Shown here: piece by piece, positions 522 through 39,465 of the stretch | Position numbering within the stretch: the stretch's first letter is position 1 | Layout: every line of letters starts with the position of its first letter | Assembly (NCBI GenBank): GCA_016926395.1 | Contig: JAFGOT010000024.1 | Location: 1 to 42,818, forward strand | DNA: 42,818 bases | DNA from: Candidatus Woesearchaeota archaeon | GTDB taxonomy: Archaea; Nanobdellota; Nanobdellia; Woesearchaeales; SKGA01 | Reading direction: 5' to 3' | Program-made: the position numbers and the translations under genes | The notes under the pieces: generated by a model | The model's database searches: none | Told to the model about the DNA's origin: nothing | What the model saw: only the letters and a program-made list of their open reading frames with translations

Positions 522-1031
522 ATGGAATACAAACGTGAACCTTTAGAAGAAGATGAAGTAATGCTACTGCGTAAATCATGCCATAACTTCGAAGAAGAAC
601 TCGCCATTAACATACTTCTTGATACGGGAATGAGAGTCTCTGAACTGGCAAATCTCAAAGAAGAAAATATTAGTTGGCAAAGAGGATGCATCACTATTAT
701 CGGTAAAGGAAAGAAACGACGAGTCATACCTTTAAGCAAGCTCGCAAAGTTCTACGTAACTCAGCTTTTTACAAAAGAAACTAAATTTCCGTTAGCGATG
801 AGAACAATACAAAAATATGTGAAAGTAGTTGCAGAAAGAGCAAGGATAAGAAAGCCTGTAAGCCCGCACGTGCTACGACACACCTTCGCTGTAACCTACT
901 TACATAAAGGTGGAAATCTTCGAGCATTACAGGCCATTCTTGGGCACAGTAGCATCACAACAACAGATATTTATCTAAACTACAGCGGAAAAAGAGTTCT
1001 TGATGATTTTGCAAAGGTGTGGGAACAATGA
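522..1031 (+). CDS. tyrosine recombinase (XerC/D-like), catalytic domain only
   Basis: DNA strand-exchange enzyme of the phage-integrase/Xer family. The 169 residues hold the full catalytic set: Arg38 in GMRVSEL, Lys62 in the beta-hairpin GKGKK, His116-x-x-Arg119 in HVLRH, His142 in LGHSS and the nucleophile Tyr151. The N-terminal SAM-like core-binding domain (about 90-100 residues in XerA/XerC/XerD) is missing, so the protein is roughly half the usual length. The distance from Lys62 to the HxxR box is also short (54 residues against 76 in the second recombinase here). The nuclease gene starts inside its stop codon (ATGA). It may be a remnant of an integrated element or a minimal recombinase that needs a partner. 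The catalytic assignment is secure; activity is uncertain. Confidence 0.85.
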   Translation: MEYKREPLEEDEVMLLRKSCHNFEEELAINILLDTGMRVSELANLKEENISWQRGCITIIGKGKKRRVIPLSKLAKFYVTQLFTKETKFPLAMRTIQKYVKVVAERARIRKPVSPHVLRHTFAVTYLHKGGNLRALQAILGHSSITTTDIYLNYSGKRVLDDFAKVWEQ

Positions 1032-1555
1032 TGCGAAAACATCGTGAAGACATGATTAATCTTGACCTTGATTGTTTTTTGTTTCGTAATGATGATTTAG
1101 ATTATGAAGAATATTATTATCTGGAAAATCACGGTTACGAGTATGGAGAGTTTGTACCAATTGGTAAAAATTGTCAAGAAGAATTTCTTATTAAGAAAAA
1201 TACTCGCGAGTCGCTAGGTCATACATTTCTTGTTCATAACATTAAACAAGAATTAGAAAAATGTGGTGTTGAGGTAAAAACATACATTACAGTAAAACCA
1301 GACCTGATTTTTACCACAAAGAAAAACAAAATTTTTGTAGTTGAAGTTGAAACAGGAAAACAATTTCGAAGAAGAAAACAAAGAATAAAAAACAACTTCG
1401 AAAAAGTAAAACAAAAATATTCAAACGTTGTAATTGTTGTAACGACAACTAAAGTAAAAAGACACTACCAAAGACTATTACCAAACAACACAATAATGGT
1501 AAGAACAGATATACAAAAATGGATAGCCTCGCTCAAGAAGAATAAAGAGTTATAA
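1028..1555 (+). CDS. PD-(D/E)XK-like nuclease family protein
   Basis: I chose the ATG at 1028 because it overlaps the recombinase stop as ATGA; a GTG at 1019 is also in frame. The centre has KPDLIF (Asp about residue 92), then a hydrophobic strand and VVEVETGK (Glu106, Glu108, Lys111). This is the arrangement of PD-(D/E)XK nuclease folds, followed by a basic helix and a strand-rich tail ending in a short Trp-containing helix. Nucleases of this look are frequent in archaeal integrated elements and plasmids. Coupling to a recombinase suggests a role in element maintenance, integration or defence (inference). The N-terminal 60 residues are acidic and Tyr-rich and match nothing I recognise. Confidence 0.55.
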   Translation: MMRKHREDMINLDLDCFLFRNDDLDYEEYYYLENHGYEYGEFVPIGKNCQEEFLIKKNTRESLGHTFLVHNIKQELEKCGVEVKTYITVKPDLIFTTKKNKIFVVEVETGKQFRRRKQRIKNNFEKVKQKYSNVVIVVTTTKVKRHYQRLLPNNTIMVRTDIQKWIASLKKNKEL

Positions 1556-1627
1556 TTACGGTACCAACAGCATGGCCGGAAACCGTTTAGAAACAAATAA
1601 TTATGCAAGCTAAGGGGGTGAAAAAGA

Positions 1628-1642
1628 GGGTGCAACGCACCC
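1628..1642. terminator. short hairpin after the integrase/nuclease pair
   Basis: GGGTGC and GCACCC form a perfect 6-bp stem around an AAC loop. It lies between the ends of two convergent units, the nuclease (+) and the SHOCT recombinase (-). It could stop or stabilise either transcript; there is no strong T-tract on the + side. Confidence as a terminator is low. Confidence 0.3.
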
Positions 1643-1663
1643 CAAGATAACACCCAAAAAATA

Positions 1664-2410
1664 CTAAACAGAACTCAAGTTACAAAGCAACAAATATTGC
1701 TCTTCAAAAGCTTCCATACTAATTTCTCCACTAGCAAAGCGAAGTTTCAACACTTGTAGAGGATCCTCTATTTTCTCGAAATGTTTAGTATGACTTTGTT
1801 TTTTGCCAAAAGCTAAGTTAATTTTATTTTGCAAATCTTTATTACTGATATATGCATAGACTTGTGTTGTGTGTATATCAACATGACCTAAAGACCTTTG
1901 CACATAATACAAATCAACACCTTGCTCCAACAAATAGGTAGCATAAGTATGCCTTAATGTGTGAAAACTGTAAGCATACCTTTGTTGTCCAATAGTTGAT
2001 TTGAAAGTTTTAATACTAAGTTTAGCTTTTTCAAGATATTCCTTAAATTTTCTTGATAAAAGATTTGTCACATAAGGATTTTCATATTCATTACAAATAA
2101 AAAATTCACTTTCTTTATTGTAACGAAACCATTTTTCAAGCAAAGGCTTTAGAGCAGTTGGCAACATTACAACTCTATCTTTTGCGCCTTTTCCTTGACG
2201 AACAATTACTTTCTCAGATTCCAAATCAACATCTTGCTTTTTCAAATTGCAAACTTCACTTATTCGAAGCCCGCAAAACAAAGCAACCATACAACCCATA
2301 AAAACAGGCGCATCATCAATGTTCTCAAATAAAGAAATTAATTGTTTCTTATTCAAAACATTAGGAAGTGTTCGTTTGTTAGCGTTTGGTCGAGCAAAAT
2401 TAGTTGCCAT
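1664..2410 (-). CDS. tyrosine recombinase with C-terminal SHOCT-like segment
   Basis: Site-specific recombinase, 248 residues. The catalytic set is complete: Arg49 (GLRISEV), Lys74 (GKGAKDR), His150-x-x-Arg153 (HTLRH), His176 (LGHVD) and Tyr185. As in the recombinase at 522, the N-terminal core-binding domain is missing; only about 20 residues precede the catalytic fold. After the nucleophile a linker leads to residues 216-242 (DPLQVLKLRFASGEISMEAF), which fit the short SHOCT motif, a two-helix module often at protein ends and thought to mediate oligomerisation. The start ATG lies one nucleotide after the stop of the upstream gene, and the Shine-Dalgarno-like AGAGGG sits inside that gene's end, so the two are probably translationally coupled. 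Likely from an integrated element. Confidence 0.87.
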   Translation of the reverse strand: MATNFARPNANKRTLPNVLNKKQLISLFENIDDAPVFMGCMVALFCGLRISEVCNLKKQDVDLESEKVIVRQGKGAKDRVVMLPTALKPLLEKWFRYNKESEFFICNEYENPYVTNLLSRKFKEYLEKAKLSIKTFKSTIGQQRYAYSFHTLRHTYATYLLEQGVDLYYVQRSLGHVDIHTTQVYAYISNKDLQNKINLAFGKKQSHTKHFEKIEDPLQVLKLRFASGEISMEAFEEQYLLLCNLSSV

Positions 2411-14534: not shown

Positions 14535-15380
14535 TTACCAATTAACTTTTAAGATTTTATCATCACTGTATGTTGCTATTGCCACATTGTTTCCTGTATT
14601 CTTTGCGATTAAATCTTTAAGGTTTATAGCTGATTCTTTATTGGTGTAATTTCCTGCTGTGTATTTAATCCACTTTTCACCTTTTACTTCGCTTGGGGTT
14701 GCTCTAATTTCAAGGTTTGGAAATTCCTCTTTTAGATTACTAAGGACTATTGAATCAACGCTAGTACCTTTTGTTGCAGCTAATTGGATTGCAAAGAATT
14801 CATCATTAGAATGGTTATTTTTTGAGTAATTATTTGTTTTTGGCATTGAAGCCATCATAATTGTTTCTGGTTTTGTGTTGTTGTTTGATGTGTTGTCGCT
14901 TGCGAATGCTTTGTATGTTATGTATGTTGCAGCTCCACTGATTAGTAACCAAGTAAATATTTTTTTAATAGGAAATAAACCATCGGATTCAACACCGTTT
15001 TTGTAACCTACAACAAAACCGTATTTTCGATCTTTTTCTCCAATATAATTCTCTGCTTCGTTACCAATTTTTCTAACTTTATCTGCTCCACTTTTATCTT
15101 CGGTTGTTGGTTTAACTTCAAAGAGTGCAAAGAATCTTTTACCAATTCCACTCACATCAACATCTTTATCGTTTCTTCCAGAACCGAAATTTTCGGAGCG
15201 CATGTATTTATTATTTTTTGCTGCACTAACATCCTCGCTATCTGCGCCTCCTTTTAGAAGATATTTCCAAAAATTTCTCCTAACATGGCCTGATGTAACG
15301 TTGTGTGATCCAAAATCTCCGCCTGATGCAATATCATCTAATGCTTTGTTGACAATCTTTGCTACTTGCTTTTTTTTCAT
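14535..15380 (-). CDS. membrane-anchored SPOR-domain protein
   Basis: A 281-residue protein with a cytosolic or N-terminal globular part (1-135, Gly/Asn/Lys-rich), one membrane helix (about 139-158, IFTWLLISGAATYITYKAFA), an Asn/Ser-rich linker, and a C-terminal SPOR-like domain (about 194-276). The latter shows the paired beta-alpha-beta repeats: FFAIQLAATKG...LKEEFPNLEIRA, then WIKYTAGNYTNKESAINLKD...VAIATYSDDKIL. SPOR domains bind denuded peptidoglycan at division sites in bacteria; the form here is closest to Bacteroidetes-type SPOR. That is unexpected in an organism that otherwise looks archaeal. It is downstream of and overlaps (ATGA) an unknown gene, so they form an operon. Confidence 0.65.
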   Translation of the reverse strand: MKKKQVAKIVNKALDDIASGGDFGSHNVTSGHVRRNFWKYLLKGGADSEDVSAAKNNKYMRSENFGSGRNDKDVDVSGIGKRFFALFEVKPTTEDKSGADKVRKIGNEAENYIGEKDRKYGFVVGYKNGVESDGLFPIKKIFTWLLISGAATYITYKAFASDNTSNNNTKPETIMMASMPKTNNYSKNNHSNDEFFAIQLAATKGTSVDSIVLSNLKEEFPNLEIRATPSEVKGEKWIKYTAGNYTNKESAINLKDLIAKNTGNNVAIATYSDDKILKVNW

Positions 15381-15865
15381 TTTTTTGGAAATAAGACTTT
15401 GGATAGTTTTGCAACTTGTTCTGAGAAAAGTCCGGGTACTTCTTTAGCTTCGCCAAGATTTATGCTTGTTTGGTAGTTTAGTTGTTTATTATTATCTGAT
15501 TTGAAAATGTGAATTTCATAATTAGGTGATATTTGATCATCAATTTTGAAAAATTTGTAGTCTCTTGCATTTCCTTGAAAATTGCATGAGCTATTCATTA
15601 TAGAAATACTTAGAAGTGCATTGTAAGTTTCGTTTATTGCATCATACCTTACTTTTCTAGTGATGTTTTTTCCTGCTTCTTCTAGCTCATTAATTGTTAT
15701 TTCAGCAACTTCTTCAGCGAAATCATTAAACATTAAATCTTTTAGTTGTTTAGTTGTCCAGGGATGTTGGTAGCAAAATGTAGTGATTTCATTATCGGTT
15801 TTACTATTTGCTAGCTCTTCTAAACCTTGCATGTGGTTTGTAAGTTCTTTTTTTTGGTTGTTCAT
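15377..15865 (-). CDS. unknown soluble protein, first gene of the SPOR operon
   Basis: A 162-residue protein with no signal or membrane helix. The N-terminal part is helical and acidic (NDFAEEVAEITINELEEAGK); the C-terminal half is strand-rich (YEIHIFKSDNNKQLNYQTSINLGEAKEV). No family is recognised. Its stop overlaps the SPOR-gene start by 4 nt, so translation is coupled. A TATA-like ATATATTC at about 15922-15929 would give a leader of about 30-35 nt. Confidence 0.6.
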   Translation of the reverse strand: MNNQKKELTNHMQGLEELANSKTDNEITTFCYQHPWTTKQLKDLMFNDFAEEVAEITINELEEAGKNITRKVRYDAINETYNALLSISIMNSSCNFQGNARDYKFFKIDDQISPNYEIHIFKSDNNKQLNYQTSINLGEAKEVPGLFSEQVAKLSKVLFPKK

Positions 15866-15943
15866 TTTAATCTCTCTTTAGTTTTTCTTTTCACTCCCTT
15901 GTAAAAAAGGAACAGGCCTTGAATATATAAGTATTTTGATTTT

Positions 15944-16027
15944 TATTGCTTTTTTGAACTTTAAATAAGAATTAATTAGGTTAAATGTTCTTTATATTGC
16001 TTTTTTAAGGTAAATTTACTAGGTTAA
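15944..16027. repeat. imperfect tandem repeat upstream of the SPOR operon
   Basis: TATTGCTTTTTT occurs at 15944 and again at 15995, each followed 20-30 nt later by AGGTTAA (15978 and 16021). The unit spans about 50 nt with a diverged centre. It lies upstream of the TATA-like box of the 15865 gene and may hold regulator sites, or be a degenerate duplication. Confidence 0.35.
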
Positions 16028-16064
16028 TTGTGTTTTTAGACTGTTTTTCTTAATAATCTTTAAT

Positions 16065-16985
16065 TTAGGGGTTTTTTTGGTCGTCTAAAAATTCTTCAAA
16101 GATCGGGCTTGCTGTGATTTGAATCATTCTAAAAATCGCTTGGAGATAAGATAGTGTTGCAGGATTCGTGTTATCCTCGTTGTTGATGAGTTTGTTTTGA
16201 ATTCCACCAAAATGGTATTTCTTACGTTCTTGCATAATTTTGAGAAAATATTTCATGTCTTTTGTAAAATATGCGTTGTACAATGATTGAAAATAATCGT
16301 CTAATCCTTTTATGAATTCATTGACTGTTTTTGTTGTTTGGAAGTTTTCTTTAAAAAATTCCGCAAAGTAATTTATCGAGTGTTGAACGTGTGTTAAGAA
16401 TGTTAGGAGCTCCCAATGAATTAATGGATCTCTGTTGTATCTGTCGTTGTGAATGACTCTTTTACAGAAATACACGTACTTGTCGAATTGTTCTCTTGAT
16501 TTTATTACTTCGTTTAGTGTTTCTTTATCTTTTTTGTTTAAACTTTCTTGGATTGTTGAAATGTCGTTTTTTATTATAAAAAATAACCTTCGAAGGATTG
16601 ATTCATATTTTTCTCCGCTAGGTTCGGCGATGTTTTCAATTACACATTTATCGTTTGTGTGATTTGTTACTAAAAATCCTAGAAGAAGTTTCTCAACTAT
16701 TTTTGTTATTTCTTTAATTGGTAGTTCTTTTCCCGTGATTATTATTTTACTATAGTTGTTTCTGTAAATATGAGTTAGCCAATAATGGATGTATTGAGTG
16801 TCTGTTTTATCAAAGTTTATTGTGCTTGTTTTTTCTGATGTTTTATCTTTTCTAATTATTAGATCTCCATTTGATTCGGTAATTGAGATTGTATCTTCTT
16901 TAGTTAATCCTTTCTTATCTATCCATTTCTTTGGTAGGTAGACTGTGAATCCTCCCAGTCCTTGAGGGATTAATTTTCTTTCCAT
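16065..16985 (-). CDS. AbrB/SpoVT DNA-binding domain fused to PhoU-like domain
   Basis: Transcription regulator of the archaeal PhoU-like class. Residues 1-50 form the swapped-hairpin AbrB/MazE DNA-binding domain (GGFTVYLPKKWIDKKGLTKEDTISI); the remainder is all-helical like PhoU, which in bacteria modulates phosphate uptake. The fusion is characteristic of archaea and is one of the better taxonomic clues here. There are no pst transporter genes nearby, so the target is unknown. A perfect 14-bp palindromic TATA box (17004-17017) is placed for a leaderless start, and a 16-bp palindrome lies just beyond it (17024-17039). Confidence 0.85.
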   Translation of the reverse strand: MERKLIPQGLGGFTVYLPKKWIDKKGLTKEDTISITESNGDLIIRKDKTSEKTSTINFDKTDTQYIHYWLTHIYRNNYSKIIITGKELPIKEITKIVEKLLLGFLVTNHTNDKCVIENIAEPSGEKYESILRRLFFIIKNDISTIQESLNKKDKETLNEVIKSREQFDKYVYFCKRVIHNDRYNRDPLIHWELLTFLTHVQHSINYFAEFFKENFQTTKTVNEFIKGLDDYFQSLYNAYFTKDMKYFLKIMQERKKYHFGGIQNKLINNEDNTNPATLSYLQAIFRMIQITASPIFEEFLDDQKNP

Positions 16986-17003
16986 AACTAGATGTTTTTC
17001 TTT

Positions 17004-17100
17004 ATTTATATATAAATGTTCTCTTATTAATATTAATAATATTAGTTAATTCCATAAGATGTTTCTAATTTACTCCTTAATAGTGAGAAAATTCTCACTA
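17004..17100. promoter_or_regulatory. divergent control region with three palindromes
   Basis: ATTTATATATAAAT (17004-17017) is a palindromic TATA box for the AbrB-PhoU gene. TTATTAATATTAATAA (17024-17039) is a perfect 16-bp palindrome next to it. TAGTGAGAA-AA-TTCTCACTA (17081-17100) is a 9-bp inverted repeat flanked by TTAA on both sides, with a possible half-site TGAGAA near 17121. The last faces the envelope operon that starts at 17175. Homodimeric regulators such as AbrB-type proteins could bind these sites. Confidence 0.5.
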
Positions 17101-17174
17101 ATTAACAAAACAAAGAGAGGATGAGAAATTGTTTGAAAACTTTGGTTTTTTGATAATTTTTCTAAATATAAAAA

Positions 17175-17933
17175 ATGAAAACACAAATGCCTATTAAAAA
17201 AGAACAAGTAGAACAATTAATCGGTGGCGTAGTTGCTGGTTACAATGGATTAGTTAATATGTCTGGTTTAGAACAAGACAAATCTGCAGAAACAGATATT
17301 TTTGTTGGAGTCTCAACTGTTGGTTTAAGAAATCAATCTGAATTAGGAAAAATTGTAAACAATATGTTTTCTTTTGGACTAAAAGATGTATTTCAAGCAA
17401 ACGATTTTTTCAAAAGACAAATTGAAGGAGCTGGAGTCCCAAGTGAAGAACAATTAACTGCATTACTAAACACATACAAAACTGATGTTAATAATACTCG
17501 AGAAAAAGTAAATAATTACTTAAATGCAATCGAACAAAGAGCAGAAATTAAAGTTGAAGCTTTCAAAGATAAAGTAGAACTTCTAAATTTATCATTACAA
17601 ACAAAAAAAGTTCAAACAGTTGCTGATGCATTAGAATCAATTGCAGAGCTAGCTGGTTGGAATGCAGAAGTGAATACTAAATCAGTATATGATGCAGGAA
17701 AAGCAATTGGTGTTCTAGCACAATATAATTCTGATTTTGGATTTAATCAAGCAAATAAAATTGTAGTAGATATTGCAAGTGCATTAAATCAATCTCACGT
17801 AAGAAATGCGATTGGATATAATCCTTTTAGTGGTAAACTAATTCCTGGATTTGTTAAATCTGCACCTGATCAAACCTACAAAGGAAACCTAGATGTTGAA
17901 TTAATTGCAACAGAAATGGTAAGAAAAAGCTAG
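17175..17933 (+). CDS. unknown helical protein, first gene of the envelope operon
   Basis: A 252-residue protein without a signal peptide. It is mostly alpha-helical with Ala/Leu/Lys-rich heptad-like stretches (NNTREKVNNYLNAIEQRAEIKVEAF...), suggesting coiled coils in the middle, and a less structured C-terminal end. No family is recognised. It is followed by a hairpin and a long T-tract, so it may be expressed more strongly than the three genes after it. Promoter: a TATA box is not obvious, but the 20-bp palindrome at 17081 lies upstream. Confidence 0.65.
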   Translation: MKTQMPIKKEQVEQLIGGVVAGYNGLVNMSGLEQDKSAETDIFVGVSTVGLRNQSELGKIVNNMFSFGLKDVFQANDFFKRQIEGAGVPSEEQLTALLNTYKTDVNNTREKVNNYLNAIEQRAEIKVEAFKDKVELLNLSLQTKKVQTVADALESIAELAGWNAEVNTKSVYDAGKAIGVLAQYNSDFGFNQANKIVVDIASALNQSHVRNAIGYNPFSGKLIPGFVKSAPDQTYKGNLDVELIATEMVRKS

Positions 17934-17966
17934 AGCAATCTAGTTTTCTTTTTCTTAATTTTTTTA
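17930..17966 (+). terminator. GCAA-tetraloop hairpin and T-tract inside the operon
   Basis: CTAGA-GCAA-TCTAG (17930-17943) is a 5-bp stem with a stable GNRA-type loop that includes the TAG stop of the first gene. It is followed by a T-rich tract to about 17966, then AGAGGAACG as ribosome-binding site of the next gene. It is likely a partial terminator that sets the ratio between the first and later genes. Confidence 0.5.
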
Positions 17967-17977
17967 GAGGAACGAAA

Positions 17978-19012
17978 ATGAAAAGGGCGAATTTAGTTAA
18001 AACTTTAGGACTTGCAACAGCTTTAGCTTTTGGAGGCTTAGCAAACGCACAAGTAGATACTACAAAAACTAACTATGTTAACAATATAGAAGCAAACGTT
18101 TTATCAACACCAGATATGAGTAGATTTAGAGCTGTTCTTGAAACTAAAGATTTTACAATAAAAGGATTTGAAAAAACAACTTCTGACACCACTATTTATG
18201 GTGGTCATGTAAAAGTTAATATTCCTAAAACTAAAACGTCGCTTTGGTATAGACATGATGAAGGATTAAACGCTTTTACTCTTTCAACAGAAATAAAAAA
18301 ACAATCTATTTTTCCATTTTATTTACAATTTGATGATAAAACAAACGAGTACCTTGGAACAATGTCTTTATTGATGGGAAATATTCCTGTTAATAATAAA
18401 AATAATATTGATTACGGTGCTTGTTGGGTTGTTCCATGTGATGGAAAAAACTTGGTTGGTGGAAAACAACAACTTGCTGGTTACGCTTTGTTAGAAAGAC
18501 CAAATTCCACTACAGGAATAATAAAAGAATATGATCAAACATATCATTTAATTCATGGTTTTGATACTCCTGATTTAGGTGCATTACTTGATGGTAAAGT
18601 GGACTTTGAAACAGGAGATTGGAACGCTACTGCTGTTATTGCAGAAAATCCTGGTTTAATAACAAGCAAGAAAGGACCGCATGAATTTGCAGTATTTTAT
18701 GGGCTTGGTTATTTTGAAGAACATGTTCCTTATTTTTCATCAACAGGAACAAAAAGTAAACGAGGTTCATCTGCAAAAATATCTATTGGTGAATTGGCTG
18801 ATAATCTGATGTTAAACTTAGAAGCAGGTTACAATACTGGGAAAGTTGGATTTAGTGCTGGAGCACATTACAAAGAAGGTGCTAATTTAGCAGTCAAACC
18901 ATATGCTGCTATTGCTTACAAAGGAGAAAATACTTTTTCAGAATTAAAATTCTCAAAAGATGATAACAACAATTCAACGCTTAGTCTTTACTTTGCAATA
19001 GATTTGAAATAA
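17978..19012 (+). CDS. secreted beta-rich protein, beta-barrel-like
   Basis: It begins with a clear Sec signal peptide (MKRANLVKTLGLATALAFGG, then LANA-Q, cleavage after residue 24). The mature 320 residues are built of alternating-polarity strands with aromatic ends and short Asn/Gly/Asp turns: KTSLWYRHDEGLNAFTLSTE, LMLNLEAGYNTG, KVGFSAGAHYKEG, LAVKPYAAIAYKGENTF, and a final strand NSTLSLYFAIDLK. That pattern resembles bacterial outer-membrane beta-barrels, although the last residue is Lys instead of Phe. There are two nearby cysteines (DYGACWVVPCDG) that could pair. It lies in an operon with a lipoprotein. If the host is an archaeon, a barrel would be exceptional; a secreted beta-sandwich is the alternative. 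Confidence 0.6.
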   Translation: MKRANLVKTLGLATALAFGGLANAQVDTTKTNYVNNIEANVLSTPDMSRFRAVLETKDFTIKGFEKTTSDTTIYGGHVKVNIPKTKTSLWYRHDEGLNAFTLSTEIKKQSIFPFYLQFDDKTNEYLGTMSLLMGNIPVNNKNNIDYGACWVVPCDGKNLVGGKQQLAGYALLERPNSTTGIIKEYDQTYHLIHGFDTPDLGALLDGKVDFETGDWNATAVIAENPGLITSKKGPHEFAVFYGLGYFEEHVPYFSSTGTKSKRGSSAKISIGELADNLMLNLEAGYNTGKVGFSAGAHYKEGANLAVKPYAAIAYKGENTFSELKFSKDDNNNSTLSLYFAIDLK

Positions 19013-19024
19013 AGGCGAGTAGAT

Positions 19025-19708
19025 ATGAAATCAAAAAAGGATGCAAAAAAAGATTTATCTTTTTTGGATAAATCAAAACAATTTTATCATAAAGCGCTTA
19101 ATACTAAACAATATCAAAAACGTGTTGAATTTGAGAACTTAAAAGAGCAAGCTTTAGCTAAATTAAGTTATTATAGGAATATTTATCGTATTAATGATAT
19201 TTTTGATTATTACAAAGATCAAGTTGTGGACCATGTTGAAAAATCAGTGACTCAAAATGATTCTGATCAGTTATCTGTTGATAAGTCTGTTATTCATTCT
19301 CGGCAAAAAATACAGCGATTAAGACAAATTGTTACAAATGCTTATCGTGATAATCCAGATGGTTTAAAACGGTACTTTAATTATGATTTGCCTGTTTTTG
19401 CAGGACTTGCTTCTTCTGCTTATTTTCAATTAACTGGAGATATTTCTCCTTGTCTTAGTTTGGTTTATGGTGGTTTAGGTAGTGTTGTTAATGATTCTCC
19501 AGAAAATCTTAAAATTGGAAGATGCCAATTTCATTATTCAACTATAGGAAAACATGCTTTTGGAAAAGCTTCACTTGATGACTTGGCTTTAATGGGTTCA
19601 GAAGTTTTTAATTATGCTGATAAAGAATTATCTTTCAAAGATCGTGCTACTCGTTCTGTTTTTGATATTTTTGTTACAAAATCAACTGTTGATAAAAATG
19701 AAAAATAA
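19025..19708 (+). CDS. unknown protein of the envelope operon
   Basis: A 227-residue protein starting with a basic, Lys-rich N-terminus, then Tyr-rich helices (YHKALNTKQYQKRVEFENLKEQALAKLSYY). The centre has a hydrophobic stretch (YDLPVFAGLASSAYFQLTGD...CLSLVYGGLGSVV) that could be one or two short membrane hairpins. No signal peptide and no family recognised. It starts 12 nt after the secreted beta-rich gene, and its end overlaps the lipoprotein start by 11 nt, so co-expression is likely. Confidence 0.6.
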   Translation: MKSKKDAKKDLSFLDKSKQFYHKALNTKQYQKRVEFENLKEQALAKLSYYRNIYRINDIFDYYKDQVVDHVEKSVTQNDSDQLSVDKSVIHSRQKIQRLRQIVTNAYRDNPDGLKRYFNYDLPVFAGLASSAYFQLTGDISPCLSLVYGGLGSVVNDSPENLKIGRCQFHYSTIGKHAFGKASLDDLALMGSEVFNYADKELSFKDRATRSVFDIFVTKSTVDKNEK

Positions 19709-20093
19709 ATTGATAAAAACATTTGGATTAGCTGCATTGGTTACTCTTGCTTCTTGCCAATCATATTCTCCAAATAATGTGAGAGATATGCCTTTGGATG
19801 ATTCAACGTTTGTTGATTTTCAATATTATTCTAATGGACAATCTTATCTTGTTGTAAAAGAACCGATTAAAGTTAAACGCTATGTGTTTAGAGATGATTT
19901 TCCCAAGAATGTTGCTTTTCAAGGTTTAGAGATATTTGTAAAAGATTCTGTTGGTAATTTTAATCTTATTGAGGATGTTCAATTAAAACATATTTCATTT
20001 AAAGAACGACGTGAATTAGAATCAACAATATATAATTTATGTGAAAAAATAAGTGAATATAATTATGATGTTTTGAAATCTAATTTTAGATGA
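19698..20093 (+). CDS. lipoprotein with LASC lipobox
   Basis: The frame is open from 19614, but the ATG at 19698 gives a textbook lipoprotein signal: MKNKLIKTFGLAALVTLASC with lipobox Leu-Ala-Ser-Cys20. The mature part (111 residues) is strand-rich (FVDFQYYSNGQSYLVVKEPIKVKRYVF) and ends in a charged helix. It overlaps the previous gene by 11 nt. It is probably lipid-anchored on the outer face and works with the secreted beta-rich protein of the same operon (inference). Confidence 0.7.
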   Translation: MKNKLIKTFGLAALVTLASCQSYSPNNVRDMPLDDSTFVDFQYYSNGQSYLVVKEPIKVKRYVFRDDFPKNVAFQGLEIFVKDSVGNFNLIEDVQLKHISFKERRELESTIYNLCEKISEYNYDVLKSNFR

Positions 20094-20534
20094 TTATTTT
20101 TTTAATGGTTGATATTTGCCTGTTGGAACTATTTTAACTGTGTAGTTTGCTTGAAGAGAGTCCGATAGTGCTTTTGTTTTTTCTGTTAAAAAATGCTCTG
20201 GCATTCCAAGATACGAATTCCATAAATCAACAAATTTAACAACATCTTTAGGAACTAATCTTTCACCGTCTTTAGTTGTAAACTCTTTATATTTTTGATA
20301 GTTATAAGCATCAGTTTCACCATTTTTCATATGTTCTTCTATCTCTGATTTTACTTTATCAAAAAGTTTTTTACCGCCAAATGTATATATCATCATATCT
20401 TCGGTATCAACATAATCTTTTCCTCCTTTGGCTGCATAGAGTGCCTGAGGTATTACTCTTGAAACTAATGTTCTTGCATCATGTGGGTCATCCAATCTAT
20501 ATTCGTCGAAGTTTGTTAATGATCTATAATTATC
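20094..20534 (-). pseudogene. in-frame continuation of the kinase gene beyond a TAG codon
   Basis: This open stretch is in the same frame as the kinase gene upstream and is separated from it only by the TAG at 20535-20537. There is no ATG in its first third; the only early start is TTG at 20495. It adds 146 codons (DNYRSLTNFDEYRLDDPHDA..., ending PTGKYQPLKK) that would extend the extracellular tail of the kinase to 635 residues in total. It is either the end of a gene broken by a nonsense mutation, a readthrough product, or a separate TTG-started gene. The stop abuts the lipoprotein stop on the other strand. Confidence 0.5.
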
Positions 20535-22001
20535 CTAATTTTCTTGTAGTCCTTCACTAAACATTGCGCCTCCTCCAAGTGAAGTTGCTGCTTTAATGTA
20601 TGCTATGGAAAGATTAAGAATGTGAAAATTATTTCTTGCATTTAATCTATATTTGTCTGTTCTATTTGCCATGTCCATTGCCATTCCAATAGTGCATGTT
20701 TCTTCAGGAATGAATGGTTCTCTATCAAATTTTATGGTATCTTGTTTTTCAGCTTGATTTCCTAGTTCTATTAATTCCATTACTGGGATTGCTTCAGGGT
20801 ATGTTAGATCTTTAGGTTCATAAGTTCTATTTAGATAAAAACCGAATAATAAACCTGCACCAATAACTGTTGTGAATGCTAATGGTCCAATTGATTTTCT
20901 AGCAACTTTTTTAAGATATTTTGAACCAATTTGGTTTTGTTTAATTTCTTCTAATGCTTCTAGAATTTCTTTTCCATTTTGGTAACGGAAACTTCTTTTT
21001 CCTCTAATTTTATTGATGTTTTTTTCTTCATACTTGTATTGTTCTGGTCTTATCATATCAAAAATTGTATTTCTAATTTTTTTAGGAAGTTTCTTTACTT
21101 TTCTTTTATAATATTTTTTTAGTTCTTTTTCTTCTACTGTGGACATAAACTTTTCATACAAGTTTACTTTTTCAAGTAAATTTTTCCCTTCTTTTGTTAC
21201 TGTATCAAATAATTCTTTGTTCAAATCTTCGCCAGTAAACATATAATATGCGACAGCACCAAAACTATAAACATCATTTACTTTATCCGCTCTAAAATAT
21301 TCTTTGAATGTTTCTGGAGCTCGGTATAAGAAGTCGCCTGTTGCTTGTTTTTTATCCATGCTCCAAGATCCTTTAGAAGCGGTTCCAAAATCATTTAATT
21401 TAGGAATTTTTTTACTTGTATATTTAGAATCTGTGTATCTAAAGTGTTCTGGTTTGCCATCTCCCCAAATTTTATTTTTTGATGTGTGCATTGAGTTTAT
21501 TCCTTTTGCAAATCCTATTAAATCTTCTAAATTTTCATCAAACGTTCTATACTCAAAATTAATATCTTCAATGCTACTTGGTAGAAATTCTTCAACCATT
21601 GCTAATTCGCCATTTTTTAGAACTTCTTTGTAGGCGAAAGCTAATCCTTCAAGGGAGTTTGGGTTTCCATCAAGAAGTTCTTTTTTCATTAATTCTATTT
21701 TATCTTTAGAATCGGCGTCACGAAACATTTTTGTGAATTCTGTTTCGTTAATGATTTTGATAACACGAGGAATTTTAAGTTCACCTATGCTTTCATATAC
21801 AAGAGGTGCTTCTTTCCAAGATGCTGCTCCTAGTTTAGAAACATATTCAAACTTATCGGGGATTAATTCTTTAACATTAATTTCTTTTCTAGACCATAAG
21901 TGTTTTACAACAGGATCGTCTTTGTGTTCTTCAAGAACTGGATTGGATGGTCTTTGTCTAATTTCTTTTTCAGCAAGAATTAGTGTGTCGTCTAAAGTCA
22001 C
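20535..22001 (-). CDS. transmembrane Ser/Thr protein kinase (eukaryotic-like)
   Basis: Signalling kinase: catalytic domain about 50-350, membrane helix about 370-390 (SIGPLAFTTVIGAGLLFGFY), then an external tail. Visible residues: Lys82 in RVIKII (ATP-binding lysine), Asp181 in WGDGKPEHF (catalytic loop; HRD is replaced by GDG but KPE is kept), Asp204 in DFG, APE (228-230) and DVYSFGAVAYYMFTGE. The glycine loop (KLGAASWKEA) is degenerate. GTG start overlaps the stop of the ribbon-helix-helix gene (GTGA). The stop is TAG; the frame stays open for 146 more codons. Its location next to envelope genes suggests it senses or controls the cell surface. Confidence 0.85.
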   Translation of the reverse strand: MTLDDTLILAEKEIRQRPSNPVLEEHKDDPVVKHLWSRKEINVKELIPDKFEYVSKLGAASWKEAPLVYESIGELKIPRVIKIINETEFTKMFRDADSKDKIELMKKELLDGNPNSLEGLAFAYKEVLKNGELAMVEEFLPSSIEDINFEYRTFDENLEDLIGFAKGINSMHTSKNKIWGDGKPEHFRYTDSKYTSKKIPKLNDFGTASKGSWSMDKKQATGDFLYRAPETFKEYFRADKVNDVYSFGAVAYYMFTGEDLNKELFDTVTKEGKNLLEKVNLYEKFMSTVEEKELKKYYKRKVKKLPKKIRNTIFDMIRPEQYKYEEKNINKIRGKRSFRYQNGKEILEALEEIKQNQIGSKYLKKVARKSIGPLAFTTVIGAGLLFGFYLNRTYEPKDLTYPEAIPVMELIELGNQAEKQDTIKFDREPFIPEETCTIGMAMDMANRTDKYRLNARNNFHILNLSIAYIKAATSLGGGAMFSEGLQEN

Positions 22002-22129
22002 TTTTTCATCACCTCGTTTAGTGCGTACTCAAGTGCGTGTGATTTATTTCGAAACTTACCACTACGTATTCCTTCTCTAATTAGGATGATTGTTTTTTCA
22101 TCCACGGTAATACTTAGTCGGTGTTTCAT
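21998..22129 (-). CDS. ribbon-helix-helix regulator, 43 residues
   Basis: A very short gene (start ATG 22129, stop TGA 21998-22000). The sequence MKHRLSITVDEKTIILIREG, then IRSGKFRNKSHALEYALNEV, is a textbook Arc/MetJ/CopG ribbon-helix-helix: a DNA-contacting strand (RLSITVD) and two helices, with the conserved G-x-(F/Y)-x-N-K-S turn. These are dimeric repressors. Its stop overlaps the GTG start of the kinase, so the pair is co-translated. A candidate operator lies between its TATA box and start codon (22143-22164), consistent with autoregulation. Confidence 0.8.
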   Translation of the reverse strand: MKHRLSITVDEKTIILIREGIRSGKFRNKSHALEYALNEVMKK

Positions 22130-22142
22130 TTTGTCACCTATA

Positions 22143-22176
22143 AGTAGTATTATTAAGTATTACTCATATTTAAATG
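22143..22176. promoter_or_regulatory. TATA box and AGTA-type operator of the RHH-kinase operon
   Basis: On the minus strand the TATA box is within 22165-22176 (CATTTAAATATG). Immediately downstream is a 22-bp imperfect palindrome (22143-22164) with AGTAxTA half-sites at each end, placed between TATA box and predicted transcription start. That is a typical repressor position in archaea. The divergent thioredoxin-lipoprotein promoter (TTTATAAA, about 22209-22216) is 35 nt away, beyond a CACT-CAAAA-GTG inverted repeat. Confidence 0.5.
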
Positions 22177-22254
22177 TTTCGTTACTTTATCACTCAAAAG
22201 TGGTAATTTTATAAATTCACAATGTTTAAAAGGCATTTAGAAGGCTTAAAACTG

Positions 22255-22635
22255 ATGAAAAGAACAATTTTACTTAGTTTAATGGTTATTGTGGCTTTAA
22301 CACTCTCTGCTTGTGGTGTTGATAGTGCAGATGGTTCTGCTAACTATTCGCCAGAAGAAAAGGCTTCTATAAGTTCTTTTGCTCAGTGTTTGACTGATGC
22401 AGGGGCTGCAATGTATGGTGCAGAATGGTGTAGTCATTGTAAAGCTCAAAAAGCATTGTTTGGAGATTCTTTTGAAGATGTTTTATATTATGAGTGTACT
22501 GTTGAAGTTGATGCTTGTAATGCTGCAGGAATTGAAGGTTATCCAACATGGGTTGTTGATGGAAAAAAATATCCTGGGGAACAAAGTTTTCAAACACTTG
22601 GAGTTTTAACTGGATGTGAAGTTCCAACCATTTAA
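22255..22635 (+). CDS. lipoprotein with thioredoxin-like domain
   Basis: I use the ATG at 22255, not 22222: the TATA box at about 22209-22216 puts transcription start downstream of the first ATG, and the later start gives a perfect lipoprotein signal (MKRTILLSLMVIVALTLSAC, lipobox LSAC with Cys20). The mature part has a thioredoxin fold with YGAEWCSHCKAQ (Cys59, Cys62) and cis-Pro97 in GYPTW, plus Cys45, Cys81, Cys88 and Cys121. The phrase closely matches the thioredoxin-like domain that partners VKOR enzymes. It would form or shuffle disulfide bonds at the cell surface. No VKOR is in the window. Confidence 0.85.
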   Translation: MKRTILLSLMVIVALTLSACGVDSADGSANYSPEEKASISSFAQCLTDAGAAMYGAEWCSHCKAQKALFGDSFEDVLYYECTVEVDACNAAGIEGYPTWVVDGKKYPGEQSFQTLGVLTGCEVPTI

Positions 22636-22736
22636 TTTTTTTATTTTTTTATGAGAACTTTTTTAAACAAATCAATATTATCTATTTTGGGTTGTTTCTT
22701 TTTCAAGGTTGCGTGTATTTGATTCTATAGTAAACT

Positions 22737-23291
22737 ATGGTTAATTTAAAGAAAACAGTATTGTTGCCTTTAGCAGCATTAACATTAGCTTTTGCTAAAG
22801 CAGATGTAGCTAAAATAGATAGTCTGAAATCTCCTTCTTCTTTGGAGCAGACAGTAGATTTTACAAAACGACATAAATTTATTCGATTCAGTGATAATAA
22901 TTTTGAAGGTGGTTTTGAACTTTCACCATTTCAAGATTTTGGAGTGAATATTAGTTTTCCTATACTTGATATTGGTGAATTAAGTTCCTTGTATTTTGAT
23001 GTATCTCTTAGTACGCCTTTTAATTCTCTAAGGCCATATTTTAGTCACGGTGTTACTGCAAGACTTGAAGATTTTGGAATTCAAGCAGGTCTTAATTATG
23101 TTGCAGATTCTAATGGTGCTCCTTTGCCACCAAATAAACTTAGTTATGATCCTGCACCGTATATTGGAATAAAACGTTTTTTCCCTGAAGAAGATGCTTC
23201 ATTCTTTTTTAGGTGGAATATGTCTAGAAATTCGTACGATCCTGCTTTCACAACTGGAATTTCGTTTGCGATTAATAGAAAACGAAGTTAG
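22737..23291 (+). CDS. second secreted beta-rich protein, beta-barrel-like
   Basis: A 184-residue protein with a signal peptide (MVNLKKTVLLPLAALTLAFA, then KA-D, cleavage near residue 22). The mature part consists of amphipathic strands with aromatic residues and Gly/Asp/Asn turns: GGFELSPFQDFGVNISFPIL, SLYFDVSLSTPFNSLRPYF, GIQAGLNYVAD, SFFFRWNMSRNSYD, and a final strand TTGISFAINRKRS. It looks like a small 8-strand barrel or related beta protein, and mirrors the protein at 17978 in style. No family is recognised. No close Shine-Dalgarno site is seen; TTTTTTAAAC at about 22655 may be its promoter. Confidence 0.6.
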   Translation: MVNLKKTVLLPLAALTLAFAKADVAKIDSLKSPSSLEQTVDFTKRHKFIRFSDNNFEGGFELSPFQDFGVNISFPILDIGELSSLYFDVSLSTPFNSLRPYFSHGVTARLEDFGIQAGLNYVADSNGAPLPPNKLSYDPAPYIGIKRFFPEEDASFFFRWNMSRNSYDPAFTTGISFAINRKRS

Positions 23292-34999: not shown

Positions 35000-35971
35000 A
35001 TGACAAAGCAATTACTTCAAGATATGAAAGAACTTTATGGTTTAACTGTTAAAGAGATATTTAGATTTGGAAAAAGTGTTAATGCTACTTACAAATTAAT
35101 AACCAAAGATGGTGAATATTTCTTAAAGGAACTTTATTTCTTTAAGGGGACTAAAAAAGAACACTTCTTTGCCCAAGTGGATATAGTTTTGCACATGAAA
35201 AAGAAAGGACTTAATGTTTTAACTCCTTTGCAAACAAAGACGGGAGGATATGTTGGAGAAATAAATAATCGTTATTACCTGCTTTATCCTTACCACGAAA
35301 TTGATGCTCCTTTGAATAATGATGATAGACTAAACTTTGCAGCAAATACTTTAGCTGATTTTCACGAAGCGATGAAAGACTTCGAAACAAAATATGAAGT
35401 TCAAGAAAAATCCATTGAAAAAGATGTGGATACTATAACTTTGTTAACTGAAGAACCAAAAACATTCCATAGTGAACCTCTTGTTGATTCAGCAAAAAAA
35501 ACCAAACATCCTTTGAAAAAAGAATTCATAAAAGAACTACCTTTCTTAAAAAATGTCGCAATAAGAATAATGCGCCATCTTTGGGGAATGCCCTTTACTG
35601 AAAAATCTTTATTACATTATGATTTTGGACCTCACAACATATTTTACTCAAAGGGAAATTTTTTAGCTGTTTCTGACTTTGATTTTTCTCACTTTGGTTT
35701 TGTTGAAGTGGATGTTGCAAAAGCTGCGAAGTTTTGGTCTGAAAAAGAAGATGGAACTATTGATCTTAGAAAGTTTAGAAGATTTATTTATGTTTATTCC
35801 AAACAGAGAAACATGAAAATAGATTGGGGTGTTTATTATGGCTTAGCATTATTTATTGTGATGAGAAGACTTGTTTATGCTACAAACTATACTTTCACAA
35901 GAAAAGATTTAAAATTTTTATATGACAAGGATATAAAAACACTTCACTTTTTGATGGAAAATAAATTTTAA
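35000..35971 (+). CDS. APH/HSK2-like small-molecule kinase
   Basis: A 323-residue phosphotransferase of the aminoglycoside-phosphotransferase/homoserine-kinase-2 fold. Brenner motif: LLHYDFGPHNIFY (catalytic Asp208, His206, Asn213), then the Mg site SDFDFSHFG (Asp226, Asp228). The N-terminal lobe has VNATYKLITKDGEYFLKELYF, with Lys in the last strand for ATP binding. I use ATG 35000, with GAGGTGA 6 nt upstream overlapping the HAD stop; GTG 34991 is in frame but sits in the ribosome-binding site. Substrate unknown: a sugar, choline-like or amino-alcohol compound would fit a partner phosphatase. Confidence 0.85.
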   Translation: MTKQLLQDMKELYGLTVKEIFRFGKSVNATYKLITKDGEYFLKELYFFKGTKKEHFFAQVDIVLHMKKKGLNVLTPLQTKTGGYVGEINNRYYLLYPYHEIDAPLNNDDRLNFAANTLADFHEAMKDFETKYEVQEKSIEKDVDTITLLTEEPKTFHSEPLVDSAKKTKHPLKKEFIKELPFLKNVAIRIMRHLWGMPFTEKSLLHYDFGPHNIFYSKGNFLAVSDFDFSHFGFVEVDVAKAAKFWSEKEDGTIDLRKFRRFIYVYSKQRNMKIDWGVYYGLALFIVMRRLVYATNYTFTRKDLKFLYDKDIKTLHFLMENKF

Positions 35972-36675
35972 TTTTTTTGTTTTTTTTCTTTTAATTTAGA
36001 AAAACATATTATACTTCCAATGAAAAATATACTTGAACAGCCAATAACATATTGTATTGGAAACACATCCATTAAAGCTCCTGCAATAATTACTATGACT
36101 GTGTTAATGCCTGTGTATATCATGCTTTCAATAGATGTTGTTGTGGCTCGAATTTTGGAAGGAATTAACTTTTGAAAGTAATGTTCAAGAATTGGTCTTT
36201 TAAGACCTCTAAACATTTCTGGAACTACAAATAAACTTGCAGCGATTATGAATCTTCCTTCTTTTATGAACAAGGTTCCTAATAGCAAAATTAATTGCAT
36301 AGATGTCAAAAACATAAGTGCTTTTTTTTCATCTTTTATTTTGGACGCTAATAATGGGATAAATATCATTACTGCTGCTAGGGCCGATATAAAATAACCA
36401 ATGGACTCAACTGGAAAACCTACCGTATCCACCATTAACGGAGTCCAACCATCTTCCGCCATTAAAGCAATCGATGCAAAAATACCCGCTCCAATAACTA
36501 ACATTAAATTTCTTGTTTTTTTAATATGTTTAAATCCTTTTTTTGTTGTTTGCCAATTATTTTTTAATGCTTTTTTTACAGTTGTTTTTGCAGGTTTAAA
36601 TTTCTCTGGGATTCTTGCAAAGATTACTGCTCCTAGAATGTGGCTTGCTCCAATAATGTACCAAAGAAGATCCAT
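35968..36675 (-). pseudogene. MFS transporter, C-terminal part after a frameshift
   Basis: This is the second half of a Major Facilitator Superfamily carrier (six membrane helices, loop PEKFKPAKTTVKK). In the same frame the coding sequence extends upstream of the ATG at 36675 as ...LEQTYFIKYQSILYAGFVIAP... back to the poly-A tract at 36772. Restoring one A (15 instead of 14) joins it to the N-terminal part as a single 401-residue transporter, the usual MFS size. As given, the two halves are out of frame. The 3' end meets the convergent kinase stop with a 4-nt overlap. Confidence 0.75.
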
Positions 36676-36767
36676 AGATAAATTCTTTACAATATAACTT
36701 CCTATTAATGGCGCTATTACAAAACCTGCGTATAAAATGCTTTGATATTTGATGAAATATGTTTGTT

Positions 36768-37172
36768 CTAATTTTTTTTTTTTTTGTTAAATTTTAAATT
36801 GTCCATAACCCATGCTACTTCTGCTCCACTAACAAGAGTTGTTCCAAGACCAAGAATTGACCATAGTACTAATGTAGTTAAAAATGAATTACTTAAAGGT
36901 ATTAGTCCAAATGATATGCCGACAATAATCATTCCTACAACAACTGACCATTTACGACTGTATTCATCAGCAAAAGCACCTGTTGGAATTTCAAGAACAA
37001 ATGTGCTAACACCAAATATTGCAAACATTATGGATATTTGAAGAAATGATAGTCCTGTATCTAAAAAATATATGACTGCATAAGGCATTGCGACGGCAAA
37101 AGCACCTATAACAAAATTGACCAAATAAAACAGGCCTAATTCTTCAAGTTCGTTTTCTTTAAATAATTTCAA
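36768..37172 (-). pseudogene. MFS transporter, N-terminal part before a frameshift
   Basis: First 129 residues of an MFS carrier: helix 1 (FYLVNFVIGAFAVAMPYAVIYFL), helix 2, the motif-A loop GAFADEYSRKW between helices 2 and 3, helix 3 and helix 4, ending AWVMDNLKFNKKKKN and a TAG. The frame breaks inside a run of 14 A (T at 36772-36785 on the plus strand). It could be a real frameshift, phase variation by slipped-strand mispairing, transcriptional slippage that makes some full-length product, or a sequencing error in a homopolymer. Read depth and RNA data would decide. Confidence 0.75.
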
Positions 37173-38324: not shown

Positions 38325-38948
38325 TCACTCAAGATGTTTGCCAGTTAATTTAACAAACACATCTTCCAGAGAGGGGAGGATTTTGACTAAACCGATAAAA
38401 CCAATGTCATTATTATCAAGCGCACCAATTATTTCACTTGCAACGCTATCAATACGTTTAGTTTTGAAAGTTAATCGGTTGTTCTTCTTTTCATCAACTT
38501 CTAGTTTGATTTCATTAACCTTAATCATTTTTTCAAGTAATGATTTTGACTTTTCAGGTTCTGTTGTTTGCAGTTCAAAGAGGTTGTTATCTGAATATTT
38601 TTGTTTTAATTCTTTAACACTACCTTGAGCAATAACAGCTCCGTCATTCATAATAACTAAATCATCGCAAAGTTTTTCAATTTCATCCATATCATGGCTA
38701 GTGATGATTATAGTTATGTCACGTTCTTTCATTACTTTTTTCACAAACCGAAGTACATCAATCTTGGATACTGGATCAAGACCTGTTGTTGGTTCGTCAA
38801 GCAAAATGATTTTTGGTTTGGCTAAAAATCCTCTAGCTATTGCAATCTTTTGTTGTTGACCTCGAGAAAGTTTTTCAACAGGAGAATCTTCAATAAAAGT
38901 ATTTGGAGTTGATGTCGAAGAACAACCATCTAGAGTAAAAGATTTCAT
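38325..38948 (-). pseudogene. ABC-2 exporter ATPase, C-terminal part (after inversion)
   Basis: The true coding part is 38325-38877; the first 24 codons (MKSFTLDGCSSTSTPNTFIE...) are read from the inverted segment and are spurious. It has the signature LSRGQQQKIAIARG, Walker B IILLDEPTTGLDP, the H-loop ITSHDMDEIE and the C-terminal extension typical of ABC-2 drug/polysaccharide ATPases (KELKQKYSDNNLFELQTTEP...). It lacks Walker A, which lies at 39103-39347 on the same strand. The two are separated by a 220-bp segment on the other strand. Confidence 0.88.
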
Positions 38949-39107
38949 TGGCAGAGTTAGCGTGGATGCTTCATTTTTTATGAAATTAACACCACTTGAA
39001 AATCTCGACTATGCTGCAGGTCTTTACGGACTTGACAAAGAGAAAGCAAAAACAGAAGCAGAAAAAATATTAAAAGAACTTGGTTTTCCACAAAGTAAAC
39101 AACCTGT
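38878..39107 (+). other. inverted 220-bp segment of the ABC ATPase gene, bounded by ACAGG/CCTGT
   Basis: Read on the plus strand from 38878, this segment encodes the missing middle of the ATPase, TGESSIKVFGVDVEEQPSRV, then KDFIGRVSVDASFFMKLTPL and ENLDYAAGLYGLDKEKAKTE, ending KELGFPQSKQPV: the helical subdomain between Walker A and the signature. It is bounded by ACAGG (38878-38882) and CCTGT (39103-39107). Flipping the sequence between these repeats restores both junctions in frame (LPDTG-ESSIKV and SKQPV-EKLSRG) and gives one ATPase of 340 residues. Only the 5-bp repeats are shared; no longer inverted repeat is visible. I regard this as an invertible element or a fixed reciprocal inversion. 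Confidence 0.85.
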
Positions 39108-39395
39108 ATCTGGAAGGATTAAAGTTGTCATCATACGAATTAACGTTGATTTACCACAACCATTAGGTCCTAATATTCCAAAAACACTTTTATTTTTTAC
39201 AGTAAATGAAATATTTTTTACTGAATGGAATAACTTAGCTTTCTTTAAACCAAGACGCTGTGCTAATCCGTTTGTGTTTGCGTCAGTGAAATATTTGTTG
39301 ACGTCTTTAACGACCAATGCATACTCTTCATACTTGTCTACATTCATTTTGTTTGTATTACGTGTTGATGTTTTGGACGGCAAGGTCACAAGCAC
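39024..39395 (-). pseudogene. ABC-2 exporter ATPase, N-terminal part (before inversion)
   Basis: True coding runs from ATG 39347 (MNVDKYEEYALVVKDVNKYF; GTG 39395 is another option) to the junction at 39103. It includes the first strands, Walker A FGILGPNGCGKSTLIRMM and TTLILPDTG. The last 25 codons (CLLCGKPSSF...) are read backwards through the inverted segment. Joined to the flipped segment and 38325-38877, it forms a complete ATPase. In the given orientation the protein lacks signature and Walker B and would be dead. Confidence 0.85.
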
Positions 39396-39465
39396 ACGAT
39401 TTGTCGTTGAATTTTACCAACCGATAAAGAACTGCACACAAAATTATTGTTCTTTATTTTTTTAG

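What the first reader, a model, noticed from the sequence alone, without database searches (positions are those of the whole stretch)
14535..23291. Envelope region with outer-membrane-style proteins in an otherwise archaeal context
Within 9 kb there are a membrane-anchored SPOR-domain protein, two signal-peptide proteins with barrel-like amphipathic strands (17978 and 22737), two lipoproteins with Cys20 lipoboxes, and a membrane kinase. Individually each could be incidental; together they look like a surface system borrowed from, or shaped like, Gram-negative envelopes, whereas archaeal DPANN cells normally have an S-layer and one membrane.
Basis: partly seen in the sequence, partly recalled or inferred. 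Interest (0 to 1): 0.7.

Follow-up and report, generated by a model that had tools for sequence, protein, structure and literature searches.

The report
Porin-like barrels in Woesearchaeota archaea
A tiny archaeon (Woesearchaeota, DPANN) carries an island of genes for a secreted protein that looks like a bacterial outer-membrane pore, next to its own sensor kinase and DNA-binding regulator; related sets occur in other such archaea, although none of those tested has the machine that bacteria use to insert such pores.

Summary
The key protein, 17978-19012, belongs to a fast-evolving Woesearchaeota family: signal peptide, amphipathic strands, and a C-terminal F/W in 8 of 10 complete members, as in the bacterial beta-signal (the window copy ends in K). 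AlphaFold2 gives 14 consecutive antiparallel strands over residues 128-341, and Foldseek's best PDB matches are porins; barrel closure is not shown.

Relatives sit beside archaeal eL15, aIF2-gamma or PolB genes. In six Woesearchaeales genomes the barrel gene neighbours an AbrB-type regulator and a membrane kinase. All nine loci found with the kinase ectodomain carry that regulator; seven of their regulator promoters hold an exact 18-bp pattern of 9-bp repeats (TRATATNAR), including 17028-17045 here (0 expected). A sister genome with the same flanks lacks the island.

Not supported: borrowing from Gram-negatives. No Omp85 in 193 order genomes or in the eight barrel/sister genomes, no POTRA in 14; no bacterial relative found. 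The SPOR call is sub-threshold, the Trx lipoprotein belongs to the conserved flank, and 22737 is an untested orphan.

Best reading: a kinase-regulated, porin-like surface protein in archaea without known barrel-insertion machinery.

The parts
16065..16985 (-). AbrB-type DNA-binding regulator with a helical C-terminal part (PhoU-like only below threshold)
   Evidence: AbrB/MazE 18.4 bits, below cut-off, but the G147B relative passes (26 against 24.7); 33-39% identical to 8 of the 9 relatives, 23% to G147B
17028..17045 (+). operator-like direct repeat TAATATTAA-TAATATTAG (TRATATNAR x2)
   Evidence: only match in the window, 0 in 100 shuffles; same pattern in the regulator promoters of G230, G184, G182, G217, G042 and G574 and nowhere else in the loci held
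17001..17016 (-). TATA-like element about 24 bp upstream of the regulator start codon
   Evidence: aligned TATA in the regulator promoters of relatives
17175..17933 (+). first gene of the divergent operon, soluble 252-aa protein of unknown role
   Evidence: 44-bp gap to the barrel gene; no family match above threshold
17978..19012 (+). signal-peptide, porin-like beta-barrel candidate (344 aa)
   Evidence: homologs in G147, G063, G370, G407, G509, G527; AF2 meander, residues 128-341; Foldseek porin matches
19025..19708 (+). 227-aa protein in the same operon, unknown role
   Evidence: 12-bp gap to the barrel gene; weak hit to a PHROG of unknown function, E 9e-4
19698..20093 (+). small lipoprotein (lipobox Cys20)
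   Evidence: sequence; a lipoprotein gene of similar size also precedes the second barrel gene of G147
20094..22001 (-). transmembrane Hanks-type kinase with extracytoplasmic domain; in-frame TAG at 20535-20537 splits it
   Evidence: Pkinase 41 bits; GDGKPEH and DFG motifs; ectodomain shared with other genomes
14535..15380 (-). TM protein with weak SPOR-like C-terminus; in the island, membership of the system unproven
   Evidence: SPOR 16 bits, cut-off 21
15377..15865 (-). partner ORF overlapping 14535-15380 by 4 bp, unknown role
   Evidence: DUF5508 only below threshold

Best explanation
The island 14535-22001 holds a Woesearchaeota surface module: a Sec-exported, probably membrane-spanning, porin-like beta-barrel protein, an AbrB-type regulator whose promoter carries 9-bp repeats, and a transmembrane Ser/Thr kinase with a conserved extracytoplasmic sensor domain. 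Shown by computation: the recurrent gene neighbourhood, the conserved repeats in the regulator promoter, kinase active-site motifs, the signal peptide, the beta-meander, and the C-terminal aromatic residue of most of the family. Inferred: the ectodomain senses an external or envelope cue, the kinase alters the regulator by phosphorylation, the regulator binds the repeats and switches itself and the divergent operon, and the barrel then serves as a regulated pore or surface receptor, most likely for nutrient uptake. Not explained: which membrane holds the barrel and how it is inserted, since no Omp85 or POTRA protein was found.
For: Family: homologs at 20-26% identity with E 1e-9 to 1e-19. Fold: AF2 pLDDT 70-90 over much of residues 130-341, 14 strands; Foldseek top matches OmpU, PorB, VDAC, Rhodopseudomonas porin and OmpF with probability about 1. 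C-terminal F/W in 8 of 10 complete members against 6.4% of 250 background ORFs; strand-alternation z 1.5-2.8 for all barrel candidates against mean -0.5, sd 1.1 for 204 controls. Module: regulator and kinase close to the barrel gene in window, G147, G063, G217, G182 and G230; G147 holds a second module with an APH-type kinase; regulator present at all 9 kinase-ectodomain loci. Repeats: exact 18-bp pattern once in the window, 0 expected, and otherwise in the regulator promoters of 6 relatives only. Fast evolution as for surface proteins: barrel 25% identical between syntenic flanks that are mostly 54-63% (G407/G527); G217/G230 share the signal peptide region (68%) but not the mature part, regulator 77%.
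Against: The AF2 model is partial (mean pLDDT 57.7, pTM 0.57, residues 1-130 undefined; TM-scores to the best porins only about 0.3; best Foldseek E 2.6e-3). The model of the relative L023 was poor (pLDDT 43.5). The window copy ends in K, not F/W. The 8-of-10 count includes related sequences. No Omp85 or POTRA. Barrel-family genes in G370, G407, G509 and G527 have no kinase or AbrB regulator within the stretches read. The window kinase has an internal TAG. At three regulator-kinase loci (G184, G042, G574) the neighbouring output gene is not a barrel.
Confidence: 0.62

Rival explanations
1. The family is a secreted, non-membrane beta-protein (S-layer component, adhesin or enzyme-like surface sheet) that only resembles a barrel in strand pattern; kinase and regulator control a surface coat.
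For: Archaea normally have S-layers; part of the model is undefined and closure is not shown; no Omp85 or POTRA.
Against: Fourteen consecutive antiparallel strands of 7-11 residues are unlike Ig-type S-layer folds; Foldseek's best PDB matches are mostly OMP barrels; the C-terminal F/W enrichment has no ready reason in a soluble coat protein.
Confidence: 0.24
2. The barrel acts on a partner cell: the DPANN symbiont secretes it and it enters the outer membrane of a bacterial partner, whose BAM complex could read the terminal aromatic residue, acting as pore or attachment site.
For: Bacterial-type signal peptides and C-terminal aromatic residue without own Omp85; PopA of Bdellovibrio is reported to insert into the prey inner membrane (PMC12228718); small genome of 1.0 Mb.
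Against: No evidence of a Gram-negative host for these genomes; cultivated DPANN have archaeal hosts (abstract of PMC11291902); no delivery system was looked for or seen.
Confidence: 0.1
3. Unrelated secreted proteins happen to lie together; the 'system' is a coincidence.
For: The Trx lipoprotein and 22737 do look incidental.
Against: Barrel, AbrB regulator and kinase recur in six genomes, and the repeats recur with them.
Confidence: 0.03
4. The contig is bacterial or chimeric.
For: Bacterial-looking signal peptides and uvrB; a possible inversion or misassembly near 38950, far from the island.
Against: Collinear with G001 of the same genus (uvrB, Trx lipoprotein, UDP-sugar dehydrogenase, Prx, SufB); relatives lie in named Woesearchaeota/Nanoarchaeum records or beside archaeal genes.
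Confidence: 0.01

Closest known systems
Bacterial 16-stranded general porins (OmpU, PorB, OmpF)
   Same: signal peptide, up-and-down amphipathic strands, C-terminal aromatic residue in most family members; best Foldseek matches
   Different: no detectable sequence similarity, archaeal hosts, no Omp85/BamA or POTRA found, neighbouring AbrB-type regulator and Hanks-type kinase
PopA superfamily of Bdellovibrio (with a possible distal relative in DPANN Altiarchaeales, PMC12228718)
   Same: OMP-type barrel; a possible archaeal relative is mentioned there; PDB entry 9ga1 appears in the match list
   Different: only rank 46, probability 0.54, TM about 0.22; oligomer and lipid chamber not testable here
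Bacterial Hanks-type membrane Ser/Thr kinases with extracytoplasmic sensor
   Same: kinase domain, single TM helix, external domain
   Different: ectodomain had no Pfam match in the relatives scanned and pairs with an AbrB-type regulator
Archaeal AbrB/PhoU-type phosphate regulators (recalled from memory)
   Same: N-terminal AbrB/MazE-like domain and helical C-terminus
   Different: PhoU only sub-threshold in the window copy (E 0.026) and not reported at E 0.1 in the relatives tested

Membership tests
Outer-membrane beta-barrel protein (porin type) | Sec signal peptide | tested here: met
   visible by eye in all members listed; no signal-peptide predictor was run
Outer-membrane beta-barrel protein (porin type) | antiparallel amphipathic strands closing into a barrel | tested here: inconclusive
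   14-strand meander with porin matches; closure not shown, second model poor
Outer-membrane beta-barrel protein (porin type) | C-terminal beta-signal ending in F/W | tested here: inconclusive
   8 of 10 complete family members, but the window copy ends in K
Outer-membrane beta-barrel protein (porin type) | Omp85/BamA assembly machine in the genome | tested here: not met
   PF01103 0 of 8 and 0 of 193 genomes; PF07244 0 of 14; own MAG is 82.5% complete
Outer-membrane beta-barrel protein (porin type) | residence in an outer membrane | not testable with these tools
   needs microscopy or fractionation
PopA superfamily | 16 strands, loop 8, radial oligomer with lipid chamber | not testable with these tools
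   only a weak fold match
Hanks-type Ser/Thr kinase | kinase domain with catalytic D-x-K and D-F-G | tested here: met
   Pkinase above cut-off; motifs
AbrB-type regulator | AbrB/MazE-like N-terminal domain | tested here: inconclusive
   window copy 18.4 bits against 24.7, the G147B relative 26, other relatives 17.6-24.3
PhoU domain protein | PhoU domain | tested here: not met
   15.3 bits against 23.5 in the window, none in the relatives
SPOR domain protein | SPOR domain | tested here: not met
   16 bits against 21

The most novel reading that the evidence does not exclude
Some Woesearchaeota have an outer membrane, or an outer membrane-like surface, populated by a home-grown family of porin-like barrels that carry the bacterial-type C-terminal aromatic residue yet are assembled without Omp85, and whose expression is set by a dedicated membrane kinase and AbrB-type regulator.
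Probability: 0.27. Interest if true: 0.92.

Novelty: new variant of a known kind. Interest (0 to 1): 0.74.

Why it matters
Membrane beta-barrels are taken to belong to diderm bacteria and organelles and to need Omp85 (general knowledge). A porin-like family in DPANN archaea without Omp85 or POTRA bears on whether some DPANN are diderm, how barrels can be inserted, and how these symbionts take up nutrients or contact partners. The module (sensor kinase, AbrB-type regulator, repeats, output gene) is a concrete and testable candidate signalling route; my literature searches found no description of it.

Tried and rejected
Single-sequence scans of the viral and genome collections with the window barrel found nothing; the seven-member alignment was too divergent for that tool. 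No PDB sequence relative, NCBIfam or PHROG match for the barrel or plasmid match. Contamination or chimera rejected. Foldseek against viral proteins gave unspecific matches. Kinase hit in G021 rejected: it falls beside or in a PCNA-like ORF. AF2 on L023 failed. Structure of 22737 not run: no relatives and only two jobs; the second went to the barrel family. Literature searches for DPANN porins, Woesearchaeota outer membranes and kinase/AbrB pairs gave only the PopA remark on Altiarchaeales.

Full report
1. Context. The window is a whole contig (C30, 42818 bp) of a 1.02-Mb, 40-contig genome, 82.5% complete and 0.95% contaminated. It is grouped in the same class as records named Candidatus Woesearchaeota and Nanoarchaeum sp.. 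Flanking genes include TopIB, TrmB, Lrp/AsnC and a Suf cluster. In the same-genus genome G001 the order uvrB, Trx lipoprotein, UDP-sugar dehydrogenase, Prx, HTH, SufB/D/S/C, SOD is kept, but the stretch matching 14535-22001 is absent, with an unrelated 337-aa ORF in its place. The contig is therefore archaeal, the region is a variable island, and the Trx lipoprotein belongs to the flank.

2. The barrel family. The 344-aa protein 17978-19012 has distant homologs in G147 and G063 of the same order and in G370, G407, G509 and G527 of the same class. G370, G509 and G527 correspond to Woesearchaeota RIFOXYA1_FULL_30_10, Nanoarchaeum sp. SW.3.93 and Woesearchaeota SI037S2_bin65. Identity to the window copy is 20-26%. 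In G063 the gene lies near uS15 and aIF2-gamma, in G147 near PolB, in G407 and G527 beside eL15; these neighbours were named by eye from their sequences. Further members by position and form, with weak sequence support, are the second G147 copy, G217, G230 and a G182 copy cut by the contig end. The family is rare: 3 of 288 order genomes (single-sequence search) and 6 of 378 class genomes (profile).

3. Is it a barrel? AF2 with four rows: mean pLDDT 57.7, pTM 0.57; residues 130-341 mostly 70-90, 14 consecutive strands. The best PDB matches are OmpU, PorB, VDAC, Rhodopseudomonas porin and OmpF, probability about 1, but E is only 2.6e-3 and TM about 0.3. A second model, of the relative L023, failed (pLDDT 43.5). 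Eight of ten complete members end exactly in F or W; 6.4% of 250 background ORFs do. A binomial value of 1e-8 is too optimistic, because members are related. All barrel candidates, 22737 included, have raised strand alternation (z 1.5-2.8; controls mean -0.5, sd 1.1). I judge a membrane barrel likely, not proven. The window copy ends in LK and G217 in FKK instead of a terminal aromatic residue.

4. Insertion machinery. Omp85 (PF01103): 0 of 8 genomes, including the barrel-bearing G000, G147, G063, G370 and G407, and 0 of 193 order genomes, while seven diderm control bacteria ring. POTRA (PF07244): 0 of 14, including all barrel-bearing genomes; that search also rang, below the cut-off, in the control Methanocaldococcus, so its specificity is imperfect. 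A classical Gram-negative assembly route is therefore unsupported; a very divergent Omp85 is not excluded.

5. The module. In the window the barrel is the second gene of an operon (17175-20093, +) divergent from the AbrB-type regulator 16065-16985(-); a TM kinase follows at 20094-22001(-). The same three genes lie together in G063, G147 (twice, once with an APH-type kinase), G217, G182 and G230. A profile of the kinase ectodomain alone found nine true loci; all nine have the regulator next to the kinase or, in the window, 3 kb away. The G021 hit falls in a PCNA-like ORF and was dropped. Six of the nine have a barrel gene in the neighbourhood. At the other three the gene divergent from the regulator is different: a sigma-70-like protein (G042), a response-regulator-like ORF beyond a 650-bp gap (G184), and LivK/H/M transport genes (G574). 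This suggests the pair is a reusable switch with a surface or nutrient-related output.

6. Operator-like repeats. The divergent intergenic regions align around a TATA element of the regulator and a run of 9-bp repeats TRATATNAR. The exact pattern TRATATNARTRATATNAR occurs once in the window (17028-17045; 0 in 100 shuffles) and, among all loci held, only in the regulator promoters of G230, G184, G182, G217, G042 and G574; the first G147 regulator has a variant, while G063 and the second G147 regulator share a different element. The pattern was derived from these promoters, so its presence in them is not an independent test; its absence elsewhere and the chance expectation are. Position beside the regulator's own TATA makes autoregulation the direct reading; control of the divergent operon is inferred.

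7. Evolution. Between syntenic G407 and G527 the adjacent neighbours are mostly 54-63% identical but the barrel is 25%; G217 and G230 share the first 42 residues (68%) but not the mature barrel, with regulators at 77%; G217 and G184 have regulators at 81% and kinases at 31-46%. Against this, G370 and G509 barrels are 80% identical among flanks of 65-92%. Overall, output and sensor evolve fast and the regulator slowly, as expected for parts exposed to the outside.

8. Mechanism. Most likely: ectodomain senses, kinase signals to the regulator, regulator switches the barrel operon, barrel serves uptake or contact. The signalling steps and the role of the barrel are inference. Confidence about 0.62 that it is a regulated, membrane-spanning porin-like surface protein; 0.27 for an own outer membrane without Omp85.

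9. Limits. The window kinase carries an internal TAG that may be an error, a mutation or real.

Noticed in passing
L039:10990-12096 (G042): Sigma-70-like protein (Sigma70_r4 43.8 bits, cut-off 24.1) in a Woesearchaeales contig, divergent from the AbrB-type regulator at the place where barrels sit in relatives; sigma factors are not expected in archaea.
   Followed up: partly
window 20535-20537: In-frame TAG inside the kinase ectodomain reading frame; the downstream part is still homologous to relatives.
   Followed up: partly
L011:5271-6248 and L019:2664-3641: In G370 and G509 the barrel gene is divergent from a two-domain Lrp/AsnC-like regulator instead of the AbrB type.
   Followed up: no
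L057:635-7441 (G574): Branched-chain amino-acid ABC transporter-like genes (LivK twice, LivH, LivM, named by eye) divergent from the regulator-kinase pair, interspersed with small ORFs.
   Followed up: no
L013:14043-16837 and L005:10444-12562 (G147): Runs of tandem paralogous proteins of unknown function next to the two barrel modules.
   Followed up: no
window 38325-39465: The two halves of an ABC ATPase seem to lie on opposite strands, and an MFS transporter is split at 35968-37172: possible inversion, misassembly or pseudogenes.
   Followed up: no
window 522-2410: Two tyrosine recombinase-like genes near the contig end.
   Followed up: no
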